DNA of 40,174 nt from Desulfuromonas sp. GTDB lineage: Bacteria > Desulfobacterota > Desulfuromonadia > Desulfuromonadales > BM501. Made by a program: the position numbers and the translations under genes. Below are positions 8,348 to 36,407 of the stretch, one piece after another. Under the pieces are notes generated by a model, which saw nothing but the letters and a program-made list of their open reading frames with translations, searched no databases and had not been told where the DNA came from. The stretch's first letter is position 1; the number at the start of each line of letters is the position of its first letter. The DNA is taken from positions 40,837 through 81,010 of the forward strand of contig NZ_PKUB01000026.1 in the NCBI RefSeq assembly GCF_002868845.1, read 5' to 3'.

Positions 8348-8419
8348 GGGCGGGAAACCCTCTTGGCCAGTCATGAAGGGCAATGCTCTGGTTTTTTCGC
8401 CCCTACTCACAAATTCTGC

Positions 8420-8827
8420 GGAAGGGGCTGGTTTAAAACCTAACGAGGATGTAGAAAAACTATCTTTCCAGATTCAACCTCATCCCTTTTGCCCCCCCCC
8501 AGTCCAAACCCACCCGTTCAACCCTGAACACCTTATTATTGCTATTTCGCTGATTTATACCGGCAGGGCCTATCCTGCGGCGTTCTTTGGTCTTTTCCTC
8601 ATCTTGTGCCGCAATCCGTATCGTTGGGTCTTGAAGATGTTGTGCAGCATCGTCATCAGTTTTCACTGGCCGTTGACCTTCTCCCGGTTCCGCAAAGAGA
8701 AACGTCTGGGCTAGGGTTTCGCGAATGTTTCCGAAAACCGGTTCGACGATGATTATTTCTCTGCCGCGAAACCGCGGGATGGCATGGGGAAAAGAGCCTT
8801 GCGGTTTGGAGGAAGGGTGGTTTAAAA
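8420..8827. repeat. Direct repeats flanking a decayed insertion element
   Basis: GGAAGGGGCTGGTTTAAAA (8420-8438) and GGAAGGGTGGTTTAAAA (8811-8827) lie in the same orientation on either side of the transposase remnant. They suggest an old element or a recombination scar. The remaining non-genic sequence between 8348 and 8905 shows a 113-codon open frame (8373-8714) that runs antisense to the remnant and is not supported as a gene. Confidence 0.5.
8570..8800 (-). pseudogene. C-terminal remnant of an insertion-sequence transposase (IS1182/IS5-like)
   Basis: Read on the minus strand, about 8760 to 8720 encodes IIIVEPVFGNIR. A frame change near 8710 then gives RRFSLRNREKVNGQ, an in-frame TGA (8663-8665) and KLMTMLHNIFKTQRYG, ending at the TAG at 8570-8572. 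EPVFGNIR ... R.REKVNG.W.L....HN is the conserved C-terminal pattern of IS1182/IS5-type DDE transposases. The stop replaces what is usually Trp. Only the last quarter or so of the protein is recognisable, so the element is dead. The remnant separates the amino-sugar operon from the ABC-exporter operon. Confidence 0.7.
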
Positions 8828-8905: not shown

Positions 8906-9682
8906 ATGAACCTGTTTCACTTTTTCTCACTAGTCAACACGCAAGCCAGGATGGCATTGAAGGCCGAGGCCTCAAAGTTTGTTCTGAGTTACCTTTGGTG
9001 GGTTATCGAACCATTGCTCTTTGTTCTTATCTATTACCTTGTCTTTGAGGTTTTGCTCGGTAGGGGGCGGGACGATTTTCTGCTGTTCCTGATCTGCGGG
9101 AAAATCCCATACCTGTGGTTCCAGAAGGGTGTGGTCTCCGCTTCCAATAGCATTGTTCAGAATAAAGGGTTGATCAACCAGGTTGAGATGCCCAAAGCCC
9201 TGTTCCCCTACGCCTCTGTTCAAGAAGCAATGTATAAGCAGTGGGTGGTGTTTCTTGTTCTGTTTGGCGTGGTCACGTTCTATGGGTTCCGTCCGGAACT
9301 CAATTGGCTCTGGTTGGCTCCTGTCGTCATCGTTCAGTATGCCCTGATCCTGGCATGTTCCCTGCTGGGAGCTTTATGCGTTAGTTTTTATGGTGACTTT
9401 AGAATGGTCATCAATATGGGGATGCTGTTTCTGATGTTCTCATCAGGCCTTTTCTGGGACGTGAATGACATTGCCGATCCTGCGACCCGCGACCTGTTGT
9501 TTGCCTGCAATCCACTCGCTTTCCTGATCGATGCATACCGACAGGTATTGATGGGCCGGACCGTGTATGACCTGGAGCACATGGCGGTTCTCGCTGGTGT
9601 GATTGCGGTCGCTTTGCTCATTATGCATATCGTTTTACACAAGATGAGCAGAATCATAGCAGCGCGGGTTGTGAACTCTTGA
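8906..9682 (+). CDS. Polysaccharide ABC transporter permease (Wzm/KpsM-like)
   Basis: The 258-residue inner-membrane protein of the ABC-2 type has about six hydrophobic segments. I chose ATG 8906 (MNLFHFFSLVNTQ), which gives the short amphipathic N-terminus followed by LKAEASKFVLSYLWWVIEPLL that is typical of Wzm/TagG permeases. Starting at 8834 would add 24 unlikely residues. FSSGLFWDVNDI and ACNPLAFLIDAYRQVLMG near the C-terminus match the family. The stop overlaps the start of the ATPase gene (TTGA at 9679-9682). It should export a lipid-linked polysaccharide across the inner membrane. Confidence 0.88.
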   Translation: MNLFHFFSLVNTQARMALKAEASKFVLSYLWWVIEPLLFVLIYYLVFEVLLGRGRDDFLLFLICGKIPYLWFQKGVVSASNSIVQNKGLINQVEMPKALFPYASVQEAMYKQWVVFLVLFGVVTFYGFRPELNWLWLAPVVIVQYALILACSLLGALCVSFYGDFRMVINMGMLFLMFSSGLFWDVNDIADPATRDLLFACNPLAFLIDAYRQVLMGRTVYDLEHMAVLAGVIAVALLIMHIVLHKMSRIIAARVVNS

Positions 9683-10407
9683 GCACTCTGTCGAAGAACA
9701 TTCTTGAAGCACATGATCTGGCGCTTCGCTACAGGAGTCGTTCGGGCTTGTTCAAAAGATTCGAACACACGGCCCTGAAAGGCGTTTCCTTTGAACTCAA
9801 GCGGGGGGAAACCCTCGGAATTCTGGGGCGCAACGGCTGTGGCAAGAGCACTCTGCTGCGCCTCCTGGCAGGCATCATCAAGCCGACATCAGGGACTATC
9901 GTCTGCGATAAACAAGTCAGGCGCGCCCTGTTGATTCTTGGGCTCGGTTTTCGGCCGGATCTCACGGGTCGTGATAATGCTCTGTTAAGCGCCATGCTCC
10001 AGGGATCGAGCCGAAAGCAAGCCCTTGCCGCGTTGCCGGGCATCCACAAATTCTCCGAACTTAGGGAGTTCTTCGATCAACCGGTCAAGACCTATTCGGC
10101 GGGCATGCGCGCCAGGCTGAGTTTCGCCACGGCGATAGAGACCGAAGTGGATGTGTTGCTGCTCGATGAGGTGCTCAGTGTTGGGGATGCGCATTTCAAA
10201 AAGAAGGCTGAAAAAGTAATGCTTAAGAAAATTGAAAGCGAGCAGACGGTTGTTTTCGTTTCTCATAGTGCTGCAGAGGTCAACAGATTGTGTGACCGGG
10301 CGCTGTGGCTGGAAGATGGAGTCGTGAAAAGTGAGGGCGATGTCAAAACGGTCTCCGACCAGTATGGTGAGTTCATAGAGGGCTTAAATGCAAAAAATGG
10401 TAAGTAG
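9679..10407 (+). CDS. Polysaccharide ABC transporter ATP-binding protein (Wzt/KpsT-like)
   Basis: The 242-residue ATPase starts at TTG 9679, overlapping the permease stop, so it is coupled to it. Walker A is GRNGCGKST (50-58), the signature is TYSAGMRARLSFA near 140, Walker B is DVLLLDEVLSVGD and the H-loop is VFVSHSAAEV. TYSAGM is the variant signature of polysaccharide exporters. At 242 residues it lacks the C-terminal carbohydrate-binding domain of O9a-type Wzt. It is therefore KpsT-like, and export should not depend on direct end-group recognition by this subunit. Confidence 0.9.
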   Translation: MSTLSKNILEAHDLALRYRSRSGLFKRFEHTALKGVSFELKRGETLGILGRNGCGKSTLLRLLAGIIKPTSGTIVCDKQVRRALLILGLGFRPDLTGRDNALLSAMLQGSSRKQALAALPGIHKFSELREFFDQPVKTYSAGMRARLSFATAIETEVDVLLLDEVLSVGDAHFKKKAEKVMLKKIESEQTVVFVSHSAAEVNRLCDRALWLEDGVVKSEGDVKTVSDQYGEFIEGLNAKNGK

Positions 10408-10446
10408 ACAGATCTGCGTAGTTTAGTTTTTCGTGGCTGTGTTGTG

Positions 10447-10477
10447 TTGAAAGTCCAAAGACCGATATACGTATAAC
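10447..10477 (+). promoter_or_regulatory. Candidate sigma-70 promoter
   Basis: TTGAAA (10447-10452) and TATAAC (10472-10477) are separated by 19 bases, upstream of GTG 10522. The spacer is long and the call is tentative. A 10-bp palindrome, TATACGTATA, overlaps the -10 region. Confidence 0.3.
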
Positions 10478-10521
10478 GATTAGGATGCTTTCAATGTGTA
10501 TTTTCATGACAGGGGGATGTT

Positions 10522-13026
10522 GTGAGCCAGGTAAACAGTACGGATGCCAGAGACAGGACTCTTGAGTTGCCGAATTCCCGCCATGCCATTCATGCCATTC
10601 AACCGCTTGCCCAGCGCTCCATGTTCTGGCGGCCGGCTTACCTTCAAGATTCCGCATGGCTGGAGCAAATCCCGATAGCCTTCTGGCTTGTTGAAGCCCA
10701 CAAACCAGGGGTGTTTGTTGAATTGGGCACTTGCTCGGGCGTCTCTTACTTCGCATTCTGCCAGGCCGTGGAAAAACTCGGGCTTGACACCCGCTGTTTC
10801 GCCATTGACCCCTGGAAGGGTGAAGAACAGACCGGTGGCGACGACGAAAGCGTTTTCCGCCAGGTGCAGGCGTACAACGATGTGCAATACTCCGGCTTTT
10901 CCCGTCTTGTACGCAGCACGTTCGACGGGGCGTTGCCCCACTTTTCCGATGGCTCGATCGACCTGTTGCACATTGGCGGGTCTCAGAGTCTCGAAGCCGT
11001 CCGCCACGACTTCGAAAGCTGGTTGCCGAAACTTTCTGATCGGGCCGTGGTGCTCTTGCATGACACCCATGTGGGCGAGGGCTCGTCCGGCGTGTCTCTG
11101 TTTTTCAAGGAACTGAAAAAGAAGTACCCCGCTTTCGAGTTCGTCCATGGTCGCGGCCTGGGGATCCTCAGTATTGGCTCCGACCAGTCCGGCCTGGTTC
11201 AGGGGCTCTTTCGGGCGACTGAAAGTCAGTCCGCCCTGCGAGCCGTAAACGACGTCTTCTCCAGGCTGGGGCGGGCCTGCGCAGACACCTTCCGGGTCGG
11301 TCAGCAGCAGGAGCATGCCCGCCTGCTCAGGGCGGAGGTGGATAAGCGGCAAAAGGAGCTGGACGAAATCAGGCAGACCCTCGATGAGACGAGGACCGAT
11401 CTCGGCGCCCGCTCCAGGGAGCTGGCTGATACGAGCGCCCAAATGCATAAACAGTTGGCCCAGCACGAAATCGAGCGGGGGCGGCTGGCCGAGCGGGTCA
11501 ATCTGCTGCAGGAGATCCGCACGGAGCTCAAAGGGGAGGTAACCCGGCAGCAGAAGCACATCGAAACCATGGCCAGCGCCGGGGCCGATAACGGCCGTCA
11601 ACCGAGTGGGTTCTCCGGGCGGGTCACGGAACGAAGGGAAACTGACGGACTCATAAAGGAGAAGGACCGCCAGATTGCTGAGCTCACAGACGAATTGAAA
11701 GGGCTGAAATCAGAGATTGCCCGGCGTGACGCCCAACAGGAAGAGGCCGTGGCCGAAGTCGAGCGGGTTAAGGCCAACCAAGCCTCCCAGGCGGATGCGC
11801 TTTGCAGTGCCCAAGCCAACGAGCAAGCCCTCGCCGATAAGGTAGCGCAGCTGACTCAAGACCTGGCGGCGCGCGACGAGGAAATCGATGCGGCCAACGC
11901 CGCATCGAAGGATCTCCAGCAAAAATGCATGGCCCTGCACCAGCAGTTGATTGCTCGCCAGCGGGAGTTCGCTGTTTTGAAGAAAACGCATGCGGGGGAG
12001 GTTGCCAAAAGGGATGAAAGCCGGGAGGCCCTGAAAGAGCAGGGGCAACGTCTCGATGCGGCGCTGGCGGAGATTCAGGCGCGCGAAGAGGAAATCGCGT
12101 CGGCCAATGCCTCCGAGAAGGAAATACAAAAAAAGTATATGGCCTTACATCAGCAGTCAGTCGCCCGGGAGCGGGAGCTTTCTGCCCTGAAGCATGCTCA
12201 GGAAGAGCTTCAGCGGGAAATGAAGGAGCAGGTTCGGCGCCTCGAGGCGGGATTGGCTGAAAAGCAGGTCCTGAGCGGCAGTAATGAGGGCCTCCGTAAA
12301 GAACTTGCATCTTTGAAGAACCGATTGGAACAACGAGAGTCCAGTCTGCAGGAGACGAGAAAAAAGCTGGCTGTTCAGCAACAGTTTGCAGGCAAGCTGG
12401 ATAGTGAACTGAAGATGAGAGTCAAAACACTCACGGTCACAGAGGGGAAATTGGCTGATGCCAGGAACCATGCCGGGGATCTTCAGAAACAGAGCGAGGC
12501 GTCCCTGTCCCAAATGGAAGCCGAAAACAACAAGCTCAGGAACGAAAAAAATGTTCTTGTAAAAAAGCTGGAGGATCGCTTCAAGGAACTTGCCGCCCTG
12601 ACCAAACTGCTGGAGTCCGGCGCCGTTGAACCGGTTTTCGATGGCCAGATCCCCGAGGAGCAAAAGGAAGAAACAGGCGAGTCGAAAGAGTCCCAGGAGA
12701 GCAATATCACCTTTCCCCTTCGGGCTTATAAAAGGGCAAAGAGCATAAAAAAGCAAATGGCTATTATCGAAGAATCCGACCTGTTCGACAAACCTTGGTA
12801 CCTGGAGCACTATCCGGATGTCGCTGAAAAAGGGTTGGACCCGATAAAACATTATATTTGTTTCGGTGCTTCTGAAGGGAGAGACCCCGGGCCGGACTTT
12901 GATACGGAGGGTTATTTGGAACAATACCCCGACGTATCCGAATCCGGAATCAACCCGCTTGCGCATTACATCCAGTTTGGGAAAGAAGAAGGCCGCTTCG
13001 CTTCTCGGTCCAAGTTAAGGAGCTGA
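10522..13026 (+). CDS. Methyltransferase-long coiled coil-WYL..YPDV repeat protein
   Basis: The 834-residue protein starts at GTG 10522 with AGGGGG at 10511-10516. Residues of about 55-215 form a class I SAM methyltransferase domain: VELGTCSGVSYF as motif I, AIDPWKGEEQTGG, and LLHIGGSQSLEAVRHD. Residues of about 260-705 are almost continuous charged heptads (Glu/Lys/Gln/Arg/Ala/Leu), a coiled coil of roughly 60 nm if fully extended. Residues 748-828 hold two copies of a motif of the form W/GYLE.YPDV....G..P..HYI.FG..EGR, also found in the next gene and in the glycosyltransferase at 26374. It follows a Wzm/Wzt pair, as wbdD does in E. coli O8/O9a. WbdD caps chains, and its coiled coil measures their length. 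An analogous role is inferred. No kinase domain is visible. Confidence 0.75.
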   Translation: MSQVNSTDARDRTLELPNSRHAIHAIQPLAQRSMFWRPAYLQDSAWLEQIPIAFWLVEAHKPGVFVELGTCSGVSYFAFCQAVEKLGLDTRCFAIDPWKGEEQTGGDDESVFRQVQAYNDVQYSGFSRLVRSTFDGALPHFSDGSIDLLHIGGSQSLEAVRHDFESWLPKLSDRAVVLLHDTHVGEGSSGVSLFFKELKKKYPAFEFVHGRGLGILSIGSDQSGLVQGLFRATESQSALRAVNDVFSRLGRACADTFRVGQQQEHARLLRAEVDKRQKELDEIRQTLDETRTDLGARSRELADTSAQMHKQLAQHEIERGRLAERVNLLQEIRTELKGEVTRQQKHIETMASAGADNGRQPSGFSGRVTERRETDGLIKEKDRQIAELTDELKGLKSEIARRDAQQEEAVAEVERVKANQASQADALCSAQANEQALADKVAQLTQDLAARDEEIDAANAASKDLQQKCMALHQQLIARQREFAVLKKTHAGEVAKRDESREALKEQGQRLDAALAEIQAREEEIASANASEKEIQKKYMALHQQSVARERELSALKHAQEELQREMKEQVRRLEAGLAEKQVLSGSNEGLRKELASLKNRLEQRESSLQETRKKLAVQQQFAGKLDSELKMRVKTLTVTEGKLADARNHAGDLQKQSEASLSQMEAENNKLRNEKNVLVKKLEDRFKELAALTKLLESGAVEPVFDGQIPEEQKEETGESKESQESNITFPLRAYKRAKSIKKQMAIIEESDLFDKPWYLEHYPDVAEKGLDPIKHYICFGASEGRDPGPDFDTEGYLEQYPDVSESGINPLAHYIQFGKEEGRFASRSKLRS

Positions 13027-13034
13027 TAAAAGTC

Positions 13035-13574
13035 ATGAACCAGAACACCGAAGCCATTTCCCTCATCAAGAAATCCCGGCTGTTTGACGAGGACTGGTAC
13101 TTGGAGCAATATCCGGACGTTGCATTGTTGTCCATGGATCCGGTGGAACACTACCTGAGAATAGGAGCGTTCATCGGCAGGGATCCGAGCCCCATGTTTT
13201 CGACCACCGGCTATTTGCAGGCCCACCCCGATGTGAAAAATGCGGGCCTGAATCCGCTTCATCACTACGTTAAATGGGGAAGGAGAGAAGGTCGCCCTAC
13301 GCTTCAGAGTCAGAGGCCCTGGGAAGACCGGAGCCCCTTCGACGAGGTGGCAAGGGAACCCAGCAAAGGGGCGACTGTCAACAGGGGACAGACCTCCCCT
13401 TCTTCCACTTTGGCCGAAAACCAGACCAGATCGGCGGAGATGGAAGGAACATGTCGGGAGTTGAGGAAGGAGAACGAGATGCTGCTGCTTCAACTCCACC
13501 AGGTTCAGAAAGAGTTGGAGGAGCACGTCCTGAAATGCCAGGGGTTGGCCGCCAAGTCGACAACATTCTCTTAA
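13035..13574 (+). CDS. WYL..YPDV repeat protein with short coiled coil
   Basis: The 179-residue protein at ATG 13035 starts eight bases after the preceding stop. Residues 15-93 contain two repeats (DEDWYLEQYPDV ... EHYLRIGAFIGRDP, then TGYLQAHPDV ... HHYVKWGRREGR), closely matching the C-terminus of the upstream protein. Residues of about 135-170 form a short coiled coil (RELRKENEMLLLQLHQVQ). There is no catalytic domain. It may be a spacer, an adaptor or a fragment of a once larger enzyme. The repeat is known mainly as an accessory segment of glycosyltransferases, and its function is not established to my knowledge. Confidence 0.65.
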   Translation: MNQNTEAISLIKKSRLFDEDWYLEQYPDVALLSMDPVEHYLRIGAFIGRDPSPMFSTTGYLQAHPDVKNAGLNPLHHYVKWGRREGRPTLQSQRPWEDRSPFDEVAREPSKGATVNRGQTSPSSTLAENQTRSAEMEGTCRELRKENEMLLLQLHQVQKELEEHVLKCQGLAAKSTTFS

Positions 13575-13597
13575 CAAACCCCAAATGGGTCGATTGA

Positions 13598-14938
13598 ATG
13601 CATATAGAAATTTCCTTTGACAGCTGGCTCGAGCATCTGAGGTGTCTGCTGCCTGTTACGGGTATGCTGCATGTCGGGGCCGGAGCCGGGGCCGGGTCGG
13701 CGAAAAACCAGTACGATGACTGGGGGGTCCCCAATGTCCTTTTTGTCGGGGCGGATGGGGGCCAGGATGAGACGTTGGACGCAATGGTCCAAGGCCGTGA
13801 GGGCTGGGTTGAACACAAGGCGTTTTTGAGTGATTCGGAAGGGGAAGCCGATTTTTACATCGGCTCTGAACCCAACGGGTGCAGCCTTCTGCCTTCCGAA
13901 AGCTTTGCCCGTGTGGCAGGTGTAAAGCTCGGTGAAAAGCGCCGCCTCAAGACAACGACCATTGAGTCTCTTCTCTCAAGCCTGAATTACTCTCCCCACC
14001 TGCTCAACTGGGCAACTATCGACTGCATCCCGGCCTTGCCCATTGTGCAGGGTGCAGGCGAGCATCTTGGCGAGTGGGATGTCATCGTGGCCAGGGTCCT
14101 TTTCGACGGGGAAAACCTGCCGGAGCATGGAGCGACCAAGGGCGAGGTCGACGGCTTTCTTTCCTCTTCCGGCTACCTTTGCGTCGCAACGAAGGAAGAT
14201 GAACTCCGATCGTCGGTCGGACAAGCACTTTATGTGCGGCACTGGCAGGATTCAAGCCGAACCCGGGTTGCTGAACTCCAGAAGCGGTCCACCGAAAAGG
14301 CCGCAGAGCACGCCAAGGCGGTCGCCGGGCTTGAGGGTTCGTTGAGGAGCCAGGAGGCGGTGGTCGTTCAATGCCGGGAGGAAGTGGCCTTCCTTACCAA
14401 GGCCCGGGATGAGCAGGCCAAACTGGCGGGCGAGCGGCAGCAAAAGGTCGAGGAGCTGACCAAGGCCAGGGAAAAACTGGCCAAACGCCCCAGCGAAGTG
14501 CAATTGCAGTTGGAGAAGTTGATCAAGGACCTGGACGAGCAGGTAAAGCTGGCGGCGGAACGCCAAGTGCTCCTTGAAAAAGCCAATGCCACAAAGGAAG
14601 AACAGGTCCGGTTGGCACAAGAGCTTCAAAAGAAGGTCGAGTCCCTTGAGGGGGCGCAGGTCCACAAGGACAAGCTTGCGGTCGACAGTCTGGCATGGAT
14701 AGAGCAGCTCAAGGCGGAGCTCCAGCAGGCGCGCCAGGCTGCAAATCTTGCTACCAAGCTCCAATTGTTGCGCGAGTCGGATCTCGAGGAGCTTCAGCAG
14801 CGGTACAGAGATGCGATCGCCACTCAAGAGCGCCAACACCATCTTCTGGGCGAACTCGAAGAACGATTGCGTGCGGCGGCCCAGTATTTCAGTCAGATGT
14901 TGGAGCGGCAGGATCAGCACGCCGACCGGGAGGAATGA
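13598..14938 (+). CDS. FkbM-like methyltransferase fused to a coiled coil
   Basis: The 446-residue protein starts at ATG 13598, 23 bases after the previous stop. Residues of about 1-210 resemble a FkbM-type SAM methyltransferase, with MLHVGAGAGAGSAKNQYDDWG in the motif I position, FLSDSEGEADFYIG, and NGCSLLPSE. The VGA.G pattern and the C-terminal half of the domain (TIDCIPALPIVQGAG) look degenerate, so activity is uncertain. Residues of about 225-446 are a coiled coil rich in Glu, Lys, Gln and Ala. It repeats the enzyme-plus-coiled-coil architecture of the protein at 10522, which suggests that the two act together, possibly at the end of the polysaccharide chain. Confidence 0.7.
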   Translation: MHIEISFDSWLEHLRCLLPVTGMLHVGAGAGAGSAKNQYDDWGVPNVLFVGADGGQDETLDAMVQGREGWVEHKAFLSDSEGEADFYIGSEPNGCSLLPSESFARVAGVKLGEKRRLKTTTIESLLSSLNYSPHLLNWATIDCIPALPIVQGAGEHLGEWDVIVARVLFDGENLPEHGATKGEVDGFLSSSGYLCVATKEDELRSSVGQALYVRHWQDSSRTRVAELQKRSTEKAAEHAKAVAGLEGSLRSQEAVVVQCREEVAFLTKARDEQAKLAGERQQKVEELTKAREKLAKRPSEVQLQLEKLIKDLDEQVKLAAERQVLLEKANATKEEQVRLAQELQKKVESLEGAQVHKDKLAVDSLAWIEQLKAELQQARQAANLATKLQLLRESDLEELQQRYRDAIATQERQHHLLGELEERLRAAAQYFSQMLERQDQHADREE

Positions 14939-14996: not shown

Positions 14997-15971
14997 ATGG
15001 GTGAGATGAATCCAAACCTGCTGCTTGAGTTAAAGCACCTTGCCGATACTCTCGACGGCGCATATCGATTGCTCGATGCGAATGGGGCCGGCAGCGGACA
15101 GGCCGCATCGGTAGAAACCGTTCGGCCAAGCTTGTTTGAAGAGTGCATTGGACTCTGCCGGCAGCGCGTGCCTTGGGATGCCGGGCCCATTCGGACGATC
15201 CACCACCTTTCCTGCACGGGTGGGACCCTGATCACGAAGTGCCTGGCCGCGATGCCGAATGTTCTGGTGCTCAACGAAATCGACCCGCTGAGCACCATGA
15301 CGCCCAAGGGGGGGACGTTCAATCCGGACAAGCCGCCCTTTACACCGACCGATATTGTTTCTCTGCTGAGGCAGGGGGATCGAAAGGTGCCCGAGGGGCT
15401 TCTGGTGAAGCTCTTTCTGAAGAATCTGGACCTGTTGCGCGATTAGTACGGAAGGGCAGGACGGAGGCTCCTCCTGCGGGACCATTCCCACAGCCACTTT
15501 CTCGCGGGAGATGAAATCGCCCAGAGGCCAAGTCTCCTCTCTATGGTCAAAAGCCGTTTCCCTGTGCTCTCCGTTGTGACCGTTCGGCATCCGATCGACA
15601 GCTTTTTGTCGCTGGAGAGTCATGGATGGCCCAATTGCCCCAGAAAATTCGAGGAGTATTGTCGGCGCTATCACGCTTTCCTCGATGCGCATGAAGAGGT
15701 ACCCGTCTTTCGATATGAAGATTTCGTGAACGATACCTCGGCCATCGTGGCCGAACTGTGCCAGAGCCTCGAGTTGAGTTATTCCGAATCCTTCCTGGAT
15801 ACTTTCGACGTCTTCAGGTTTTCAGGGGACAGCGGCAGGACGGGGATGACGATTGAGGCCCGCCCCAGGAGGGAGGTCAATGAGGATTTCCTCGCCGAGG
15901 TGAACAGCTCTTCGGTTTCGGTCGAGTTGCTGTCCCGTTTGGGATATGAATCCGGCGGTCGCGATGCGTAG
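14997..15971 (+). pseudogene. Sulfotransferase gene interrupted by one in-frame TAG
   Basis: One continuous frame from ATG 14997 to the stop at 15971 (324 codons) is broken only by TAG at 15444-15446. Before it, TIHHLSCTGGTLITKCL is a PAPS 5'-phosphosulfate loop, and LLVKLFLKNLDLLRD leads up to the stop. After it, the same frame continues directly as YGRAGRRLLLRDHSHSHFL, then SVVTVRHPIDSFLSL (the 3'-phosphate-binding motif) and FRYEDFV. There is no frameshift. The base change fits a Tyr, Gln or Trp codon mutated to amber. The gene is therefore a recent nonsense mutant, a sequencing error or a readthrough product. If intact, it would sulfate a sugar of the polysaccharide. Confidence 0.75.
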
Positions 15972-19666: not shown

Positions 19667-21751
19667 ATGTGTTCGTCTGGAAAAATTAAGGAAAATTCAA
19701 GCAAGAGCGAAACGCTCTTGCTTTTCTCCGTGTTTTTCTCGGTTGTTGTTTTTAACGCGCACATTCCCTTTGTGGACCTGCTTTGGCATGATGACCAGAC
19801 ATGGATTTACCGTGCGGCGACCGACTCGATTTACCAGGATTGGAGAGCAAAGACCGCATTTCTGGTCCCTCTGAAGGATTATTTCTATTCGTTTTCTTTG
19901 TTTTATCTCGGGGTGCCATTCGCGAGAATAATATATGTCTGCATTTTAGCTCTCTCATCTGTTCTATTCTATATCATTTACAACAAAATATTTGGCATTC
20001 GAAAATCAGTCTCTTTTGCCTCTGCCGTTGTGCCAAACATTCTTCCGAGTCTTATAGGTATACCGATTGGGCTCAACAATACTTATGCCGTTTGGAGCTT
20101 GATCCCGACCCTGTCCTGTCTGATATTGTTGAGATATGCCATTTTCGCTGAGAAGGTGAAATTTGTCTTCTTGTCTCTTTTGTCCTTATTGCTGTTTGTG
20201 GCTGGCCTTAACTTTTCGTCAGCAGGAATTTTCCTCATTCCAAATGTTCTCCTGTTTTGCCTCTTCTTTGTGAGGGCAAATAAGTATTATCTATCTGTAT
20301 GCCTCGGTTTTTTCGTCTCCTTCGGGGCATGGCAAGTTTATAAACAGGCCCACCTTGGCTCGAAGGCACCGGTCGCTTTTGAAAAGGCGGTTTTTGTCAA
20401 AAGGCTGCATCGGTTTTTCGAGGTCTGTACTCCTCTGCCTAAAACATTTCCATATGTTGAAATCGTTGTGCCATCTCTGATGCTGGTCGGCGTGCTGGTC
20501 CTTTTGTTTTTTCACAGGAGGTTTGTCGAAAAGCCGGATCATTTCAAAAACGTAAACAACCTGTATTATGGCGTTCTTGTCGCTCTTTGGCCTGCTTTGT
20601 GGGTCGTGTCAAACATTGCTGTTTATCTGACGGTGTCTCCCGATTTCAGGATTGACACCTATTCCTATGTCGCCAATTTTGGTGTTTCCCTTCTGATGCT
20701 GACCGGCACCCTTTTTGTCGCCGGAGCCATTTTATACCCCTTCACCTTTTTCCTTAAGCACAAGCCTGTCTATTGGGTTCTAGCCGTCTTGTTGATCTGT
20801 TTCACGGGGGGGTATAGATACGTCAAAACGAGCCACGCATACACCAAGTACGAAAAGGACATCCATCTTCTCAGGTCCAATCTCGGCCAGTATTCCTTTC
20901 CGCCCAACTCCCAGATCGTGACGTTGGGAGGGTTCTCCGCCTTCAATCAGGGATTGACGGTCTCCAATTCGGGTATTTTTATCTGGATATTTAACCGCGA
21001 GGACCTACGGGGGATGATTGGGAAGGATCAATTTCCCGCGGATCTTTTCTCCAAATTCAGTTGGAGCAAAAGGATGCGAGGCATCGATCCCGATAAACCG
21101 CTTTTTGTCTTCGCGAAAGACAAGAAGGCCGGCTTGGAGAGGGTGAAGTTGTTGCTGAGCACCACCAGTTCGAAATTGGCCAGTGGGCCGAGAATTATGT
21201 GGAGGCTCTACGATGTGAGTTCTCCGGGTGGTGAAGTGGTTGAGATGGCTAGCGGGAGCGGCCTGAAGTCCTATTACGACTATTTGAAAGACGGCATGCC
21301 AGTCGAATTCGTCAACGAATCCATTGCCTTTTCACCCTCGAAAGGCATTGCTTATGACATCATCGATCAGGATTCGGCAAAGGAGTTCCTTGAAGGTTCG
21401 AACCTGATCCAGAATGAAGTTCAATTTGAGGATGTCGTTACTCTGGGCGGAGTTAAGTGCCGCGAGATTGATCCAAAAAAGCAAGCGATCAATTTGGTTT
21501 TTCGTGTCGACAAAAATCCAAAGTACCGCATAGGTTTTTCCTTGAACGGAAAGCGCAAGTATCTGCCAATATATGACCTTGCCATGGCCGGGGATTACGT
21601 GAAGATTTCTGTATCTACACCAAAGTCCAAGAATGCAAAGCTTGAATTTTTCAAAGCAAACCGTTGGCCTCACCCTCCTATCAAAATCAAAGATAACAGT
21701 AACGAAAACAATGGATTTCTGAGTGTTGATCTCGAAGCCTGTAGTCTTTAA
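19667..21751 (+). CDS. Large polytopic membrane protein, possibly GT-C type
   Basis: The 694-residue protein starts at ATG 19667 with AAGGAA about five bases before. About ten hydrophobic segments occupy residues 16-390, followed by a soluble region of about 300 residues. After the first helix comes LLWHDDQTWIYRA (Asp42-Asp43). A di-acidic motif in the first outer loop is the hallmark of GT-C glycosyltransferases, which use polyprenyl-linked sugars. I do not recognise a specific family, and the rest shows no clear motif. Low GC matches the next gene. It may transfer the amino sugar from the lipid carrier built by the 3.3-8.3 kb operon, but this is speculation. A polymerase or a generic membrane protein remains possible. 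Confidence 0.6.
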   Translation: MCSSGKIKENSSKSETLLLFSVFFSVVVFNAHIPFVDLLWHDDQTWIYRAATDSIYQDWRAKTAFLVPLKDYFYSFSLFYLGVPFARIIYVCILALSSVLFYIIYNKIFGIRKSVSFASAVVPNILPSLIGIPIGLNNTYAVWSLIPTLSCLILLRYAIFAEKVKFVFLSLLSLLLFVAGLNFSSAGIFLIPNVLLFCLFFVRANKYYLSVCLGFFVSFGAWQVYKQAHLGSKAPVAFEKAVFVKRLHRFFEVCTPLPKTFPYVEIVVPSLMLVGVLVLLFFHRRFVEKPDHFKNVNNLYYGVLVALWPALWVVSNIAVYLTVSPDFRIDTYSYVANFGVSLLMLTGTLFVAGAILYPFTFFLKHKPVYWVLAVLLICFTGGYRYVKTSHAYTKYEKDIHLLRSNLGQYSFPPNSQIVTLGGFSAFNQGLTVSNSGIFIWIFNREDLRGMIGKDQFPADLFSKFSWSKRMRGIDPDKPLFVFAKDKKAGLERVKLLLSTTSSKLASGPRIMWRLYDVSSPGGEVVEMASGSGLKSYYDYLKDGMPVEFVNESIAFSPSKGIAYDIIDQDSAKEFLEGSNLIQNEVQFEDVVTLGGVKCREIDPKKQAINLVFRVDKNPKYRIGFSLNGKRKYLPIYDLAMAGDYVKISVSTPKSKNAKLEFFKANRWPHPPIKIKDNSNENNGFLSVDLEACSL

Positions 21752-21841: not shown

Positions 21842-22513
21842 ATGATTACTTTCTTTTCACATATCCCAAAGGCCGGTGGCACGACGTTGAAACAAATTTT
21901 TTATAAAGCCTTTGGGCAGCAAGGTTGTATAAAGGTTTGGCCAAATTTTGGTGCGGATGTCGATGTCGAAGGGTTCAAGGGGCTTGAGGAGTCCAGTTTT
22001 AGAGAGATTTCTGCAGTAGTGGGCCACCTCCCCGTAGGTTCTTTCATGGAAAACAGATTTGGGGAAAGCCTTTTTGAAAAAGGGGTCGTCGACATAATAA
22101 CTTCCGTGCGTCACCCCTTTGAAAGAATTGTTAGTCTGTATAACTATTTATATTACAATGCCGAACATCCTCATCATGAGGAAATGAAAAAGACGCCTTT
22201 AGGCAATTTCGTAAAGTATCAACCGGGGAACTATCAGTTTGAGTACTTAAAAACGGATTGTTTTGATTCTCCGAAAAAAATACTGGAAAAATTCAAAGTG
22301 TTCTCGATGGAAAATTCTATCGATGGGTTCAAGGAGTATTTTGCCGAAAAACATAACCTTATCATGGGCAATGTTGAAGTACAGAATACATCAAAGACAC
22401 ATGCCGGAGCGGGAAGGCTTTTTAAAGTCGAAGATATTCCAAAGGAAATACTTTTGGAACTAGAAAAAAAGCATGAAATTGATCTGGAATTGTACGAGGG
22501 TGCAAAAAAATAG
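21842..22513 (+). CDS. Sulfotransferase, Sulfotransfer_2 (heparan 2-O-sulfotransferase-like)
   Basis: The 223-residue protein starts at ATG 21842 with a strong GAGGAG at 21830-21835. FFSHIPKAGGTTLKQIF (residues 4-20) is the PAPS 5'-phosphosulfate loop of the HS2ST/Gal3ST class. SVRHPFERIVSLYNY near residue 88 is the 3'-phosphate motif. GHLPVGS lies between them, where the family has its catalytic-region His. It is shorter than eukaryotic relatives and has no membrane anchor, so it should act in the cytoplasm on a nucleotide- or lipid-linked sugar. A T8 run at 22557-22564 follows the gene, but no convincing stem precedes it. The gene is AT-rich compared with gmd downstream. Confidence 0.82.
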   Translation: MITFFSHIPKAGGTTLKQIFYKAFGQQGCIKVWPNFGADVDVEGFKGLEESSFREISAVVGHLPVGSFMENRFGESLFEKGVVDIITSVRHPFERIVSLYNYLYYNAEHPHHEEMKKTPLGNFVKYQPGNYQFEYLKTDCFDSPKKILEKFKVFSMENSIDGFKEYFAEKHNLIMGNVEVQNTSKTHAGAGRLFKVEDIPKEILLELEKKHEIDLELYEGAKK

Positions 22514-26373: not shown

Positions 26374-28281
26374 TTGCTTTTCAACCCATTCCGAAAGAAA
26401 CCCCCGGAGTCCGCATCGACGACCGCTGGCAGGGGCGTGTCCAGCGTTGATCGGGCAGAGGTTGCCGAGAGCGGCCTGTTCCGCGAGGACTGGTATCTGA
26501 ACCACTATCCTGATGCGGCCATGGCCGGGGTTGATCCCGTTTCGCACTACCTGGAAAACGGCGCGGCCCTCGGCTACGACCCGGGACCGGGCTTCAGCAC
26601 CTGCGGGTATTGGGGGCGGTATCCCGATGTGGCCAGTGCGGGGATGAACCCCTTGCTTCATTACCTGCGCCACGGCAGGGACGAGGGGCGGGCGACCGGC
26701 CCGGCAGGGAGGGAGAGGGACGGTTTCGACAGGAAACCTTATCGGAATTTTTCGGAATTTCTCCGCCACAGCCTGCTGCAGCCTCTCGTCAAGGCCCCCT
26801 TCTCGGAGGATGACCTCTGCAGTTTCGCAGTCATGGGCCGGATCGGCGCCCAGCTGGCCGAGCGCGCACTGAGCTGCCCCGACAGTGAGGCGCCCCTCGT
26901 TTCGGTCGTCATGCCGGCCTTCAACCGCGAGACGGTCATCGCCGAGGCCATTGCGTCGGTATTGCTACAGAGCTATGGCCGTTTCGAGCTGATCGTGGTC
27001 GATGACGGCAGCACGGACGGAACGGTTTCGGCGGCGTTGCCCCATGCCGCCGACCCGAGGGTGCGGGTCGAGAGGTGCCCGGAGCGCCGGGGCGTCTCGG
27101 CGGCGCGCAACCGGGGAATCGCCCTCGCAAAGGGCGCGTTGATCGCCTATCTCGATTCGGACAATACCTGGCTGCCCGACTACCTCGGGGCGATGGTCGG
27201 CGCCTTCCTGCAATCGCCCGAAATCGAGGCCGCCTACAGCGGACAGTATATCTGCCGCTCAGAAGAGCCGGAGCCGGTCGCGGTGCGTTTCGGCAGCTAC
27301 AACAAGTCGCTCCTGCGCAACCACAATTACATCGACCTGAATTGCTTTATGCACCGAAGTTCGGCGCTGGAGCGGGCCGGCGGGGGGTTCTGCGAGACCC
27401 TGACGAGGCTTGTCGATTGGGAGCTGATCCTGCGCATCTCGCGTTCGTGTCCCATGGTGTCGGTGCCGGTGCTGCAATCGAACTACTTTCACGACCGGGC
27501 CGACAATACCATCACCCGGACCGAGACCCTTGCCCCGGCGCTCGAGGTCATGACCAAGAGGCTGGCCGAACCGGTCGCCGTCGATCCGCCTGCCCCCCTG
27601 GCAGGGCCCGTGGCGGTCGTCGTCGTGAACCGCGAGGGCCTCGAGCCCCTGCACGCCCTTGTGGACGATCTCTGTGGGACCTATTCCCGGGCCGACGTGG
27701 AGTTGATCGTCGTGGACAACGGTTCCTCCGCCCCCGTGCGGGACTACCTCGAGAGCCTGCGGCCGATGGGGGTCGGGCTGGTTTTCAGTGACCTCGACTG
27801 CGACTTTCCGTCTGCGGCCAACCAGGGAGCGGCGCTGGCGCGGCCCGGGGCGGATATCCTGTTCCTGGGCGCCGGATCTCTTCCGGGACGGGGAGCGGTC
27901 GAGGCGCTGCAGGCCGCTGTCTATGCATCGCCCGACGTCGCGATTTCGGTCCCGCAGATCGTAGTGCCCGCCGGTCATGCCGATGCCGGGATGCATGTGC
28001 CCGACACGCTGGACGCCTTGCCCTGCGACGTCAGCCTGTCGCTTCGCCATCGCAACGTCGCCCGGGTCGGGACGTTTCACGACGGGGAGCGGGTGGAGTT
28101 GGACTATGCCCCCTTCTCCTGCGTCTACATCAAGCGGGAGGTCTGGGACCGGTGCGGCGGGCTGGCCGCCGACGGCGATTGCCCCGTCTCGCCGGAGCGC
28201 ATTCTGTGCGATTACGTCCGTCAAGTGCTGGGGATGAAGATCGTCTACACGCCGGCCGCCCTGGCGCGGCACAACGCCTGA
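26374..28281 (+). CDS. Tandem GT2 glycosyltransferase with N-terminal WYL..YPDV repeats
   Basis: The 635-residue protein probably starts at TTG 26374, with GGAGG at 26358-26362 (a rather long spacing of 11). Residues of about 33-107 hold two repeats (REDWYLNHYPDA ... SHYLENGAALGYDP and CGYWGRYPDV ... LHYLRHGRDEGR). Residues 175-400 are a first GT2 domain (VSVVMPAFNRE, VVDDGSTDGT, AYLDSDNTW). Residues of about 410-630 are a second GT2-like domain (VVVVNREGLEP, LIVVDNGSSAP) in which the usual DxD is replaced by LFLGAGS. The second domain may therefore be inactive or metal-independent. It lies in the fucose part of the cluster, and its substrates are unknown. Confidence 0.8.
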   Translation: MLFNPFRKKPPESASTTAGRGVSSVDRAEVAESGLFREDWYLNHYPDAAMAGVDPVSHYLENGAALGYDPGPGFSTCGYWGRYPDVASAGMNPLLHYLRHGRDEGRATGPAGRERDGFDRKPYRNFSEFLRHSLLQPLVKAPFSEDDLCSFAVMGRIGAQLAERALSCPDSEAPLVSVVMPAFNRETVIAEAIASVLLQSYGRFELIVVDDGSTDGTVSAALPHAADPRVRVERCPERRGVSAARNRGIALAKGALIAYLDSDNTWLPDYLGAMVGAFLQSPEIEAAYSGQYICRSEEPEPVAVRFGSYNKSLLRNHNYIDLNCFMHRSSALERAGGGFCETLTRLVDWELILRISRSCPMVSVPVLQSNYFHDRADNTITRTETLAPALEVMTKRLAEPVAVDPPAPLAGPVAVVVVNREGLEPLHALVDDLCGTYSRADVELIVVDNGSSAPVRDYLESLRPMGVGLVFSDLDCDFPSAANQGAALARPGADILFLGAGSLPGRGAVEALQAAVYASPDVAISVPQIVVPAGHADAGMHVPDTLDALPCDVSLSLRHRNVARVGTFHDGERVELDYAPFSCVYIKREVWDRCGGLAADGDCPVSPERILCDYVRQVLGMKIVYTPAALARHNA

Positions 28282-28332: not shown

Positions 28333-29802
28333 ATGATTCAATTCAAAATCGAAAACAGTTTGCCCGATAAGCTGGCCCCGAAGAATATCAATCGTTACCT
28401 GGTAGAGGGTTGGGTTGCCGGCGGATCGAGGATCAGCTATATCCGAATCAGGGTCGGTGGCAAAACGTTCGCCTCCAAAGATGTCGAGTTGTACCGCCCC
28501 GACGTCAGGACCTCCTTCTTCGCGAAAGAAAAGTCTTTTCAGACCCTTTTCCCGGGTTTCTCCATCCCCGTCGTTGTCGGCCCCGTCGAGGCCGCCGAAG
28601 AGCATGCCGTCATGTTGGAGTGTGCCTTTGCCGACGGCTCCTCCCTGAAGGAAAAAATCGGAACCGTTTCCATCGGTCCCTATGCCAAGGAAGTCCGAAC
28701 CTTCGAGATTCCGCCGCATATCGACCAGGACAACCTCCTGGCCATTTGCATGGCGACCTACAATCCGGACGGCCCCTACTTCAAAAGGCAGATAGACAGC
28801 ATCATCGGCCAGGAGCACCAGGACTGGATCTGCATCATTTGCGACGACAACTCGTCGGAAGACAGCAGGGATTTGATCAAGGAGGCCGTCAAAGACGACC
28901 CCCGGTTCTTTCTGGTGGAAAACGATCAGAACGCGGGCTTTTATGGCAACTTCGAACGTTGCCTCGAACTCGCCCCCGCCGAAGCAAAGTTCGTTGCACT
29001 CGCCGACCAGGACGACATCTGGTATCCGCACAAGCTGAGCAGTTGTCTTGCGGAATTCGATGCGTCGACCATGCTGGTTTACAGCGACATGAAGGTTGTC
29101 GACAAAGACAGAAACGTGTTGTGCGACACCTACTGGAGGAACAGGAAAAACTACTACGAGTCGAAGGACATCGACCTGCTGACACTTGCCAATACGGTCA
29201 CGGGAGCGGCCTCGGTTTTCAGGCGGGAACTGCTCGACCTGGCGCTGCCTTTCCCCCCCCGTTACGGGGAGGTTTTTCATGATCAATGGCTGGCCATCAT
29301 GGCCGCCGGGAATGGCGGCATCCGGTATGTTGACGAGCCCCTTTATGAGTATGTTCAATATGACAACAATGTCATAGGTCACACCGACTTCGGCCGTCGG
29401 TCCCTCTTCTCGGTCGCGAAGGACTATGTTCGCGAGGCCTATGACATTCAAAAACAACACCAAGGACTCTTTAAGAAACTTCTGTTGTGCCTTAAGGCGA
29501 TACCGTGTCTTGTCATAGGCCTCTACCACTTCAAGCATACCCATGGGAAACATATTGACACCCTTGCGGAAACAGCATTGCTTCGCCGGCTGAACGCCTC
29601 TTCGCAGCGACTTGTTCAAAGAACAAGATCCGCAACAGGTTTGTTCCGGATTCATTTCAAGGTTTGGAAGCGCAAAGAGACACTGAATAATCTTGAACTG
29701 GTATTCTGTTTCAGTGCAATGGCCAACACCCTGTTTCGCTGGGCCGCGCCTTTGCTCTGTTGGTATATGAAAACTTTCCTTCAAAGACGTGTGGGGAATT
29801 GA
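28333..29802 (+). CDS. GT2 glycosyltransferase with N-terminal beta-rich domain (rhamnosyltransferase-like)
   Basis: The 489-residue protein starts at ATG 28333. Residues 1-130 are a beta-rich region without catalytic motifs. From about residue 135 comes a GT2 domain: ICMATYNPDGPYFKRQIDSI, ICDDNSSEDS, ALADQDDIWYPHKL as metal motif (near 225) and GEVFHDQWLAIMAA. ADQDDIW and F.DQW are typical of rhamnosyl- and related transferases of the WbbL/RfbF type. dTDP-rhamnose is made by the genes from 31161. The C-terminal 100 residues are hydrophobic and basic, probably membrane-associated. Thirteen bases separate it from the next gene. Confidence 0.82.
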   Translation: MIQFKIENSLPDKLAPKNINRYLVEGWVAGGSRISYIRIRVGGKTFASKDVELYRPDVRTSFFAKEKSFQTLFPGFSIPVVVGPVEAAEEHAVMLECAFADGSSLKEKIGTVSIGPYAKEVRTFEIPPHIDQDNLLAICMATYNPDGPYFKRQIDSIIGQEHQDWICIICDDNSSEDSRDLIKEAVKDDPRFFLVENDQNAGFYGNFERCLELAPAEAKFVALADQDDIWYPHKLSSCLAEFDASTMLVYSDMKVVDKDRNVLCDTYWRNRKNYYESKDIDLLTLANTVTGAASVFRRELLDLALPFPPRYGEVFHDQWLAIMAAGNGGIRYVDEPLYEYVQYDNNVIGHTDFGRRSLFSVAKDYVREAYDIQKQHQGLFKKLLLCLKAIPCLVIGLYHFKHTHGKHIDTLAETALLRRLNASSQRLVQRTRSATGLFRIHFKVWKRKETLNNLELVFCFSAMANTLFRWAAPLLCWYMKTFLQRRVGN

Positions 29803-29815
29803 AAGGTCTTGTTTG

Positions 29816-31114
29816 ATGAAAAAAATAAACGTTTCGAAAGAAGAGAACTATATTTTCAATACAGCAGGATTTGAAGTTTCAGGTGGCAAGGAGTGCCTTG
29901 TCAAATTAAGCATAAAAGGGGTGAATGGCAGTCCTTATTCTTTTTATTTCTGCGTTTGCATCCTCGATGAGGCGGGCAAAGAAATAAAGAGATTTATCAA
30001 GTGGGTCGACGATTTCAGTGGAAAATCGAAAAAATACTCTCTCGTCTTCTCCGTTCCCGAGATGGCTCACAAGGCCGTGCTGGGCTATCGGGGGAATGTC
30101 GAAGGGGCTGATAAGTCTGACTTGTCATTGGCCCTCCCCGATTTGTCGGAGAATTGTCTTCGGCAGGTCGAGGGCCTGCCTGAGACTTTTGACGATTTGA
30201 AAAAACGTCCGCCGAGGGTTCTTTTCACCATCCCCGAATTGGACGGGGCAGGGGAACAACTTCTGGAGAAAAACATTGTCGGCATCTTCGGCTCCCCGAG
30301 GACCGGGTCGACCTGGCTCGGGCAGCGGCTTCTCAAAGACCATAAGGGCATCGCCAATTGGCAGGAACCGTATCTCGGGAATTTGCTTGGAACAAACCGA
30401 AGCATAAAGGATCCTCTTACGGGTGAAATGACACTGCAAAGAGTTCACGACAAGTTTGCTGAAACGGAGGATTACTTTTTTTCCAATAAACATAAAAAAT
30501 ATTGGTTGGCTGGCTTGAACAAGATGATCCTGTATAGAGCCTTTGCCCAATGCAGCGATTTTTCAAAAAAGATCGTCTTTAAGGAACCCAACGGTAGTCA
30601 GGCCGCCGACATAATCATGGAGGCGCTCCCGAATGCCAAGATGATTTTTCTTCTGAGGGATGGCCGGGATGTGGTTGATTCCCTCGTTGACCTGCACAGA
30701 AAAGGTTCATGGAACCAAAGGCCAACCTTGGACACGAAACAAAAAAGGCTGAGCAGTATCGCAAATTACTCCAAGTCATGGAGGCTCCAAACGGAGGTTG
30801 TTAAAAAGGCATTTGAAAATCACGATGAAGATTTGAGATTGCTTGTGAAATATGAGAAGCTGAAAAGCGACACCTTCGCAGAGCTGAAAAATATTTTTGA
30901 ATTTATTGGTGTTGACGCTTCAGATAAGGAAGTCTCCCAAAGAGTTGACAAGCACGATTTCAAGAATATTCCAACTTCGGAAAAGGGTCCCGGCAAGTTC
31001 AATCGCGCGGCCTCAACGGGTGGATGGAGAGATGCTTTCGCCGAGGAAGAGATCGATCTGATGCATTCAATAATGGGTGAGACTTTATTGTCTTTAGGGT
31101 ATGGTGTACGTTGA
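29816..31114 (+). CDS. Sulfotransferase with N-terminal accessory domain
   Basis: The 432-residue protein starts at ATG 29816, with AAAGG at 29802-29806 overlapping the end of the preceding gene. In-frame residues from 29789 would overlap that gene and lack a ribosome site. Residues 1-140 are a beta-rich, non-catalytic domain. Residues of about 155-432 form the sulfotransferase: VGIFGSPRTGSTWLGQRLL (PAPS 5'-loop) and MIFLLRDGRDVVDSLVDLH (3'-phosphate motif, near 279). This type sulfates sugars in the cytoplasm. It is the third sulfotransferase of the window, and PAPS is supplied by cysD and cysNC. Confidence 0.85.
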   Translation: MKKINVSKEENYIFNTAGFEVSGGKECLVKLSIKGVNGSPYSFYFCVCILDEAGKEIKRFIKWVDDFSGKSKKYSLVFSVPEMAHKAVLGYRGNVEGADKSDLSLALPDLSENCLRQVEGLPETFDDLKKRPPRVLFTIPELDGAGEQLLEKNIVGIFGSPRTGSTWLGQRLLKDHKGIANWQEPYLGNLLGTNRSIKDPLTGEMTLQRVHDKFAETEDYFFSNKHKKYWLAGLNKMILYRAFAQCSDFSKKIVFKEPNGSQAADIIMEALPNAKMIFLLRDGRDVVDSLVDLHRKGSWNQRPTLDTKQKRLSSIANYSKSWRLQTEVVKKAFENHDEDLRLLVKYEKLKSDTFAELKNIFEFIGVDASDKEVSQRVDKHDFKNIPTSEKGPGKFNRAASTGGWRDAFAEEEIDLMHSIMGETLLSLGYGVR

Positions 31115-32285: not shown

Positions 32286-32300
32286 CGCGTAACGCGTCAC
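32282..32300. repeat. Perfect palindrome forming the rfbD start
   Basis: GTGACGCGT, A, ACGCGTCAC: nine-base perfect arms around one base. The first three bases are the rfbD start codon, and bases 2-4 are the rfbB stop. It belongs to the GTGACG family by its outer bases. Confidence 0.9.
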
Positions 32301-33762: not shown

Positions 33763-33868
33763 GGACACGGACGAACACAGATTGACACGGATCAGGAATA
33801 GATCTCACAGGCTTTAGCAACCTCCGTTTTTTTGATTTATCCGTGTGCATCCGTGTAATCCGTGTCCC
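33763..33868. repeat. Palindromic element downstream of GxxExxY gene (ACACGGAT family)
   Basis: Begins GGACACGG and ends ATCCGTGTGCATCCGTGTAA then TCCGTGTCC. It is the second copy of the element at 33263-33363, in the same orientation, and lies directly before the rfbA ribosome site. Decayed pieces of the same family lie at about 35398-35424 and 36283-36343. Confidence 0.88.
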
Positions 33869-33888
33869 ATAAGAAGGAGGAGACTGAA

Positions 33889-36345: not shown

Positions 36346-36407
36346 ACCAGGTTCTTAAACACCTAAAACCTCAGACATAAAACCTAAAACTTTTTCTCCG
36401 GACAGTG

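What the first reader, a model, noticed from the sequence alone, without database searches (positions are those of the whole stretch)
8906..14938. Candidate WbdD-like molecular ruler: methyltransferases on long coiled coils next to an ABC exporter
In E. coli O8/O9a, WbdD is a methyltransferase(-kinase) whose coiled coil sets O-antigen length, and it is encoded beside wzm-wzt. Here a Wzm/Wzt-like pair is followed by a methyltransferase with roughly 445 residues of coiled coil and then an FkbM-like methyltransferase with about 220 residues of coiled coil. No kinase domain is seen, and the ATPase lacks the carbohydrate-binding tail. This could be an independent solution to capping and length control.
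Basis: partly seen in the sequence, partly recalled or inferred. Interest (0 to 1): 0.75.

Follow-up and report, generated by a model that had tools for sequence, protein, structure and literature searches.

The report
Candidate glycan ruler with degenerate methyltransferases
A bacterial sugar-coat gene cluster encodes a very long rod-shaped protein that resembles the rulers known to set sugar-chain length, but the enzyme that should cap the chain seems to have lost key residues, so length may be set, if at all, without a methyl cap.

Summary
In detail: 8906-14938 encodes an ABC-2 permease, an ATPase without a carbohydrate-binding tail, an 834-aa methyltransferase/coiled-coil protein (coil 261-699) and a second methyltransferase-like coiled-coil protein; no kinase. 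The capping interpretation is only half right. The first methyltransferase (PF13578) belongs to a widespread family on coils of variable length in glycan loci, so a ruler-type scaffold is a fair reading. But its HIDGLH motif reads HIGGSQ here (Asp and His each kept in 79 of 80 named relatives), and the FkbM-like domain lost its signature: methyl capping is unlikely. In relatives, 11 of 11 split rulers with PDV are followed by a PDV-glycosyltransferase, against 1 of 56 others. The nearest relatives lie in Kps-type capsule settings, E. coli included; the window has a Wzt-lineage ATPase and no KpsC/KpsS in its genome. Best reading: a mosaic coiled-coil scaffold or ruler coupled to its polymerase through PDV repeats, whose capping enzymes became pseudoenzymes. 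Function untested.

The parts
8906..9682 (+). ABC-2 type polysaccharide export permease (Wzm-like)
   Evidence: PF01061 3.7e-6; NCBIfam galactan_ABC_perm 1.5e-9, below that model's cut-off
9679..10407 (+). ABC ATPase, 242 aa, nucleotide-binding domain only, no carbohydrate-binding tail; groups with the NBDs of CBM-bearing Wzt, not with the short KpsT-like ones
   Evidence: PF00005 6.3e-24; tree support 0.96; CBM profile negative
10522..13026 (+). 834-aa protein: Methyltransf_24 domain + coiled coil + C-terminal PDV repeats (candidate ruler/scaffold)
10969..10986 (+). HIGGSQ (residues 150-155) in place of the family's HIDGLH: conserved Asp (metal ligand by recall) and His lost
   Evidence: 80 named relatives: Asp 79 of 80, His 79 of 80; aligned with Asp141/His144 of MeT1
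11302..12618 (+). coiled coil, residues 261-699 (about 65 nm at 1.485 A per residue if continuous)
12757..13014 (+). two PDV repeats at the C-terminus (residues 746-831), all-helical, high pLDDT
   Evidence: profile 8e-45 (the window copy is one of its 6 seeds); AlphaFold2
13035..13574 (+). 179-aa protein: two PDV repeats + short coiled coil (residues 130-171), no glycosyltransferase
13598..14242 (+). FkbM-like Rossmann domain with degenerate signature (IDCIPAL where relatives have ID.QGAE; acidic residue after beta-2 lost)
   Evidence: profile 28.7 bits; AlphaFold2; 2py6 Z 13.1, rmsd 2.6, 160 aligned
14243..14932 (+). helical/coiled-coil tail of the FkbM-like protein
26374..28281 (+). dual GT2 glycosyltransferase with N-terminal PDV repeats: candidate polymerase that docks on the ruler
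   Evidence: PF00535 with 2 stretches; PDV 5.9e-32, GT2 profile 3.4e-85

Best explanation
The 10522-13026 protein is a coiled-coil scaffold/ruler of a (probably sulfated) glycan assembly system. Its PDV repeats (membrane-proximal end, inferred) hold the polymerase, most likely the PDV-bearing dual GT2 enzyme 26374-28281, with the small PDV protein 13035-13574 as an adaptor. The coil carries a methyltransferase-fold head up to about 65 nm away. In intact relatives that head would O-methylate the chain end and stop growth, as WbdD does. Here the head, and the FkbM-like head of the second coiled-coil protein, have lost catalytic signature residues, so they act at most as SAM- or glycan-binding pseudoenzymes, and the chain is exported by a Wzm/Wzt pair that has no cap-reading CBM. 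Shown by computation: coils, folds, motif loss, PDV placement, ATPase lineage, absence of CBM and of KpsC/S. Inferred: docking through PDV, ruler function, lack of catalysis, sulfation of the glycan.
For: Coil and architecture. Variable coil, 0-701 residues at P>=0.5, between a fixed head and C-terminal modules in 80 relatives. PDV sits between coil and glycosyltransferase when fused (14 loci) and on both halves when split: next ORF has PDV in 11 of 11 split rulers against 1 of 56 others that have a downstream ORF (Fisher 9e-12, or 2e-9 after collapsing to 8 lineages); in 13 of 13 E. coli loci analysed the next ORF also carries PDV. Three PDV proteins in the window. Motif losses; the window has the most departures from 71 conserved columns, 12. 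MeT1, a sugar 1-O-methyltransferase, is the only PDB sequence match below 0.001 (2.7e-4) and the best Foldseek match (2.7e-8). ATPase in the CBM-Wzt clade (0.96) yet without a CBM. No KpsC/KpsS family in a 99.84% complete genome.
Against: No function was measured. Loss of two motif residues does not prove loss of catalysis; the SAM-side residues (E67, G69, G73, D96) and H180-D181 are kept. PDV-PDV binding is inferred from gene layout only; PDV-glycosyltransferase ORFs also occur in loci whose methyltransferase protein lacks PDV (L025, L026, L045, L055, L068). Lack of a CBM is not tied to methyltransferase loss: relatives with short ATPases have an intact motif. A neighbouring sulfotransferase-like ORF carries an in-frame TAG, so local decay cannot be excluded.
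Confidence: 0.5

Rival explanations
1. One reading: an active WbdD-like terminator; one or both methyltransferases cap the chain and the coil sets its length.
For: Layout as in WbdD; intact relatives beside Wzm/Wzt with CBM; SAM-side residues kept.
Against: HIGGSQ in place of HIDGLH, FkbM signature lost, no CBM to read a cap.
Confidence: 0.17
2. Decaying remnant: a ruler gene set acquired from a capsule locus and no longer used, with the methyltransferase heads drifting.
For: Two degenerate heads; adjacent sulfotransferase-like ORF with an in-frame stop; PDV partner 13035-13574 has no glycosyltransferase, unlike the downstream partner in the 11 split relatives.
Against: All three coil/PDV ORFs are open; 59 of 71 conserved methyltransferase columns are kept; GC3 of 0.67-0.69 in these three ORFs resembles several neighbouring ORFs; the same Asp-to-Gly and His-to-Gln pair arose in a separate lineage, L069.
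Confidence: 0.18
3. The cap is not methyl but another group, e.g. sulfate from the locus's sulfotransferases, and the degenerate head only binds the chain end.
For: Two sulfotransferases plus CysD-like and CysNC proteins (PAPS supply) in the window.
Against: No link between a sulfotransferase and the coil was found; sulfation may decorate the repeat unit.
Confidence: 0.1

Closest known systems
WbdD (E. coli O9a/O8) coiled-coil chain terminator/ruler
   Same: Methyltransferase at one end of a long coil, polymerase-recruiting region at the other, beside an ABC exporter; the O8 form has no kinase (PMC3482155, passages read).
   Different: No PDB sequence match of the methyltransferase profile to WbdD at E<=1; PF13578 head with lost motif; PDV repeats; longer coil; no CBM on the ATPase.
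K. pneumoniae O7 ORF6 / O4 ORF7 / O12 WbbB coiled-coil terminators
   Same: Terminator on a coil, polymerase modules fused or separate (PMC11231755, passages and first part of the Discussion read).
   Different: Terminating domains are a methyltransferase-kinase or Kdo transferases; no PDV repeats mentioned in what I read.
Putative methyltransferases with length-variable coiled coils in E. coli group 3 capsule clusters
   Same: In 13 of 13 E. coli loci analysed: the same type of head, coil, C-terminal PDV, next ORF with PDV and a glycosyltransferase-type domain. PMC13171606 (passages only) mentions such genes; that these loci are its group 3 is my inference.
   Different: There the HIDGLHT motif is intact in 13 of 13, and the ATPase is short with KpsE/KpsD-like partners.
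MeT1 of Mycobacterium hassiacum (6g7d, 6g80)
   Same: Closest solved relative of the methyltransferase head by sequence and Foldseek; methylates a sugar 1-OH (PMC9883506, passages read).
   Different: I know of no coil in it (recall); its Asp141/His144 correspond to Gly152/Gln155 here.

Membership tests
WbdD-type chain terminator/ruler | Extended coiled coil between a head domain and a polymerase-side region | tested here: met
   Coil 261-699 and C-terminal PDV
WbdD-type chain terminator/ruler | Catalytically competent terminating domain | tested here: inconclusive
   Conserved Asp and His replaced in the PF13578 head; FkbM signature lost; activity not assayed
WbdD-type chain terminator/ruler | Kinase domain (O9a form only) | tested here: not met
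   No Pfam kinase in 10522-13026 or 13598-14938 and no room between head and coil
WbdD-type chain terminator/ruler | Cognate Wzt with cap-binding CBM | tested here: not met
   242-aa ATPase; CBM profile negative in the whole window
WbdD-type chain terminator/ruler | Coil length sets glycan length; C-terminus recruits polymerase | not testable with these tools
   Only indirect: coil length varies and PDV is shared with glycosyltransferases
Methyltransf_24 (PF13578) | Profile match above the curated cut-off | tested here: met
   81.4 bits against 26.3
FkbM methyltransferase (PF05050) | Profile match above the curated cut-off | tested here: not met
   No Pfam match up to E 1; only a home-made profile and the fold link it
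KpsMT-type (group 2/3) capsule system | KpsC/KpsS (PF05159) in the genome | tested here: not met
   0 matches in G000; 9 of the 11 other genomes searched have it
KpsMT-type (group 2/3) capsule system | ATPase of the short KpsT lineage | tested here: not met
   Window ATPase falls in the CBM-Wzt clade, support 0.96

The most novel reading that the evidence does not exclude
A cap-less ruler: the coil measures the chain and a pseudo-methyltransferase head stops or releases it without covalent modification, matching an exporter that no longer reads a cap. In parallel, intact MT-coil-PDV proteins would be the missing length regulators of KpsC/S-type capsules, with PDV repeats as the plug that couples ruler to polymerase.
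Probability: 0.25. Interest if true: 0.8.

Novelty: new variant of a known kind. Interest (0 to 1): 0.58.

Why it matters
How ABC-dependent capsules get their chain length is called unresolved in a 2025 review (PMC12220298, passages read: presumed to depend on synthesis and export together, 'warrants further investigation'). The relatives found here put a coiled-coil methyltransferase with a shared repeat module next to glycosyltransferases in several such loci, including E. coli loci whose coils differ naturally in length, so a ruler hypothesis can be tested directly. The window adds a natural variant with a damaged head, which would separate the scaffold role from the capping role.

Tried and rejected
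FkbM-like N-domain relatives: 1 of 136 genomes of the order (itself), none among the ORFs of L008-L014 and L021-L100, none in viral contigs, weak relatives in the phylum (13 of 395 at E<=0.1 including itself; the best, L129, is a PF05050 protein; the L130 and L132 matches lie in ORFs of no evident relation and were not used; the remaining weak ones were not looked at).

Idea that lack of a CBM goes with loss of the cap enzyme: dropped as a general rule, because L021, L022 and L024 have short ATPases and an intact motif.

Idea that EIATLT marks the end of the coil: found in 6 of 11 split relatives and the window, and in 1 of 69 others, but the E. coli coils repeat variants of it internally (by eye), so it is a coil repeat, not an end marker.

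SxSWRxTxPLR-like motif after the coil: 22 of 57 by one pattern; not clear in the window, so not used.

The whole-model comparisons with PDB covered the methyltransferase parts only (residues 34-221, 4-218); the fold of the PDV repeat was not tested, and no PDB sequence matched it below 0.7. WbdD did not appear among the 50 VIA rows nor among the PDB sequence matches, which does not exclude a shared fold.

Paper searches on PF13578 metal sites gave nothing useful. The catalytic role of MeT1 His144 and the metal role of the Asp are recalled from the literature, not read. Papers on the PDV repeat could not be searched by sequence; Pfam and NCBIfam gave no matching entry.
Full report
What is there. 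The window is G000:C26:40837-81010. From 8906 on, on the + strand, lie an ABC-2 permease, an ABC ATPase of 242 aa, an 834-aa protein, a 179-aa protein and a 446-aa protein. Downstream are glycosyltransferases, sulfotransferases, a GDP-mannose 4,6-dehydratase, an NAD-dependent epimerase, a set of Rml-type dTDP-rhamnose genes (32282-33253 RmlD-like, 34839-35384 dTDP-4-dehydrorhamnose 3,5-epimerase, 31161-32285 and 33862-34761 by family only), and a PAPS-reductase-family (CysD-like) and a CysNC protein that could supply PAPS. A sulfated, deoxyhexose-containing surface glycan is the inferred product.

The coils are real. A COILS-type score with the MTK table recalled from memory gives 370 residues at P>=0.5 in the 834-aa protein (span 261-699), 123 in the 446-aa protein and 42 in the 179-aa protein; 20 shuffles gave at most 68, 84 and 0; nine control proteins of the window gave 0. 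AlphaFold2 on a 30-row alignment (mean pLDDT 79.3) shows the methyltransferase domain, helices 236-355, 364-580 and 589-698, and a helical C-terminal domain of high pLDDT. The 446-aa protein on a 5-row alignment (mean pLDDT 70.4) is a Rossmann domain followed by helices 216-295 and 299-445. At 1.485 A per residue the coil would be about 65 nm if continuous.

The methyltransferase heads. The first is Methyltransf_24 (PF13578, 81.4 bits). Its nearest solved relative is MeT1 of M. hassiacum (E 2.7e-4 by profile; first Foldseek row, 2.7e-8), a sugar 1-O-methyltransferase (PMC9883506, passages); the VIA-align rows are mostly O-methyltransferases of the COMT type (best 3tr6, Z 18.1, rmsd 3.7, 181 aligned, tied with many). 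A genome scan gave 380 relatives and kept 80 named loci. Aligned with these, the window has Gly where 79 of 80 have Asp, Gln where 79 of 80 have His, and Ser where 80 of 80 have Phe; at 71 columns with a state shared by at least 85% it departs 12 times (one of these is an insertion column), the most of all 81 sequences. The lost Asp and His align with Asp141 and His144 of MeT1; that these are metal ligand and catalytic residue is recalled, not read. Further samples: intact in 5 of 5 other order relatives, 6 of 6 strong phylum hits, 11 of 13 hits in the phylum of L023, where two could not be read by the pattern and one of the 11 repeats L023, and 13 of 13 E. coli genes. The one other exception, L069, an Anaerolineae MAG, has the same Asp-to-Gly and His-to-Gln pair in a separate branch. 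The second head has no Pfam match, but a profile of two PF05050 proteins and two of their relatives scores it 28.7 bits and the FkbM structure 2py6 is among the tied best folds (Z 13.1, rmsd 2.6, 160 aligned). Where the closer ones have ID.QG, it has IDCIPAL, and the acidic residue after the second strand is Gly. Both heads therefore look catalytically degenerate, though this was not assayed.

The PDV repeats. The C-terminus of the 834-aa protein and the N-terminus of the 179-aa protein share a repeat of the form FDxxWYLxxYPDVAxxGxxPLxHYxxxGxxEGR, called PDV here. Pfam and NCBIfam gave no entry that matches it. A profile finds it in three window proteins: these two and the dual GT2 enzyme 26374-28281. 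Among the 80 loci: 2 methyltransferase ORFs are cut by the contig end, 11 have coil plus PDV and no glycosyltransferase, 14 have PDV plus glycosyltransferase, 24 have a glycosyltransferase without PDV, 29 have neither. A downstream ORF (starting within 400 bp, at least 120 aa) exists in 11, 13, 20 and 23 of these; it carries PDV in 11, 0, 0 and 1. All 11 also carry a glycosyltransferase domain. Fisher's test gives 9e-12, or 2e-9 with three related pairs collapsed; relatedness is not fully removed. In the fused proteins PDV lies between coil and glycosyltransferase (in L069 one glycosyltransferase also lies ahead of the coil). Against a strict rule: 24 PDV ORFs are not methyltransferase ORFs, 18 with a glycosyltransferase, and several lie in loci whose methyltransferase protein lacks PDV (L025, L026, L045, L055, L068). 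The simplest reading is that PDV couples ruler to polymerase; binding was not tested.

The setting differs from that of the relatives. The methyltransferase domain groups with L021 and L022 (support 0.96) and then L024 (0.82). Where an ATPase related to the window's is in the stretch, split-PDV loci have short ones, 216-233 aa (5 of 5 loci with one; L021 also, 215), while most loci without PDV have CBM-sized ones of 354-528 aa (exceptions L025, L026 with 237 aa and L035 with 246 aa at a contig end). Nine of 11 genomes (ten with split-PDV loci, plus that of L021) have KpsC/KpsS (PF05159), the misses being those of L030 and L031; the window's genome has none; controls 2 of 14. The window's ATPase instead groups with NBDs of CBM-bearing Wzt (0.96) but has no CBM, and no separate one was found in the window. 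The locus is thus a mosaic: a ruler of the capsule lineage with an O-antigen-type exporter.

E. coli. The Aeromonas relative's methyltransferase part (L024) matches 67 records in 66 of 5426 E. coli genomes, 53 places on chromosomes and 14 on plasmids. Of 14 stretches fetched, 13 were analysed: gene order export protein - permease - 216-aa ATPase - KpsE-like - methyltransferase/coil/PDV - PDV protein with GT2 or WbsX-type domain; proteins of 840-912 aa, with the alignment gaps mainly in the coil. A 2026 paper (PMC13171606; [quoted passage not shown] I infer that these are the same genes. So the family in capsule loci is in print, but I saw no ruler claim for it (searches).

Mechanism and verdict. 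WbdD-type rulers separate termination from polymerisation by a coil, with the polymerase held at the other end and the cap read by the Wzt CBM (PMC11231755 passages; PMC3482155 passages). The window keeps the coil and a polymerase-side module but seems to have lost both cap making and cap reading. I take it as a coiled-coil scaffold or ruler working without a methyl cap (0.5), ahead of decay (0.18) and an active terminator (0.17). It is a new variant of a known kind.

Noticed in passing
window 15000-15971: Sulfotransferase-like ORF interrupted by one in-frame TAG: a pseudogene or a sequencing error.
   Followed up: partly
window 21842-22513, 29789-31114, 36405-37319, 37792-39714: Two sulfotransferases plus CysD-like and CysNC proteins: a local PAPS supply, suggesting a sulfated glycan.
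   Followed up: partly
L069 (Anaerolineae MAG): A 1675-aa protein (open at its 5' end) with a PF13578 head carrying the same HIGG.Q change in a separate lineage, an FkbM-looking N-terminal stretch, PDV and glycosyltransferases.
   Followed up: partly
L009-L013: In order relatives the methyltransferase gene follows a Wzt with a CBM-sized tail; in L010, L011 and L013 ORFs that look like a type I secretion set lie upstream, and L010 and L011 have large ORFs of possible S-layer type downstream (by eye from sequence ends).
   Followed up: no
E. coli plasmids, e.g. L160, L162-L164, L171: Capsule-type export genes with the methyltransferase/coil/PDV gene lie on plasmids in some E. coli (14 of 67 places).
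   Followed up: partly
L014 14192-17268 (upstream of the window in G000:C26, partly overlapping it): Collagen-like Gly-x-y repeat ORFs with masked stretches upstream of the glycan locus.
   Followed up: no
window 8373-8720: Stretch between the aminotransferase and the permease with no convincing gene; may be a mobile-element remnant (impression only).
   Followed up: no
window 19667-21751: 694-aa ORF, apparently multi-membrane-spanning, without a Pfam match; possibly a GT-C type enzyme or a polymerase.
   Followed up: no
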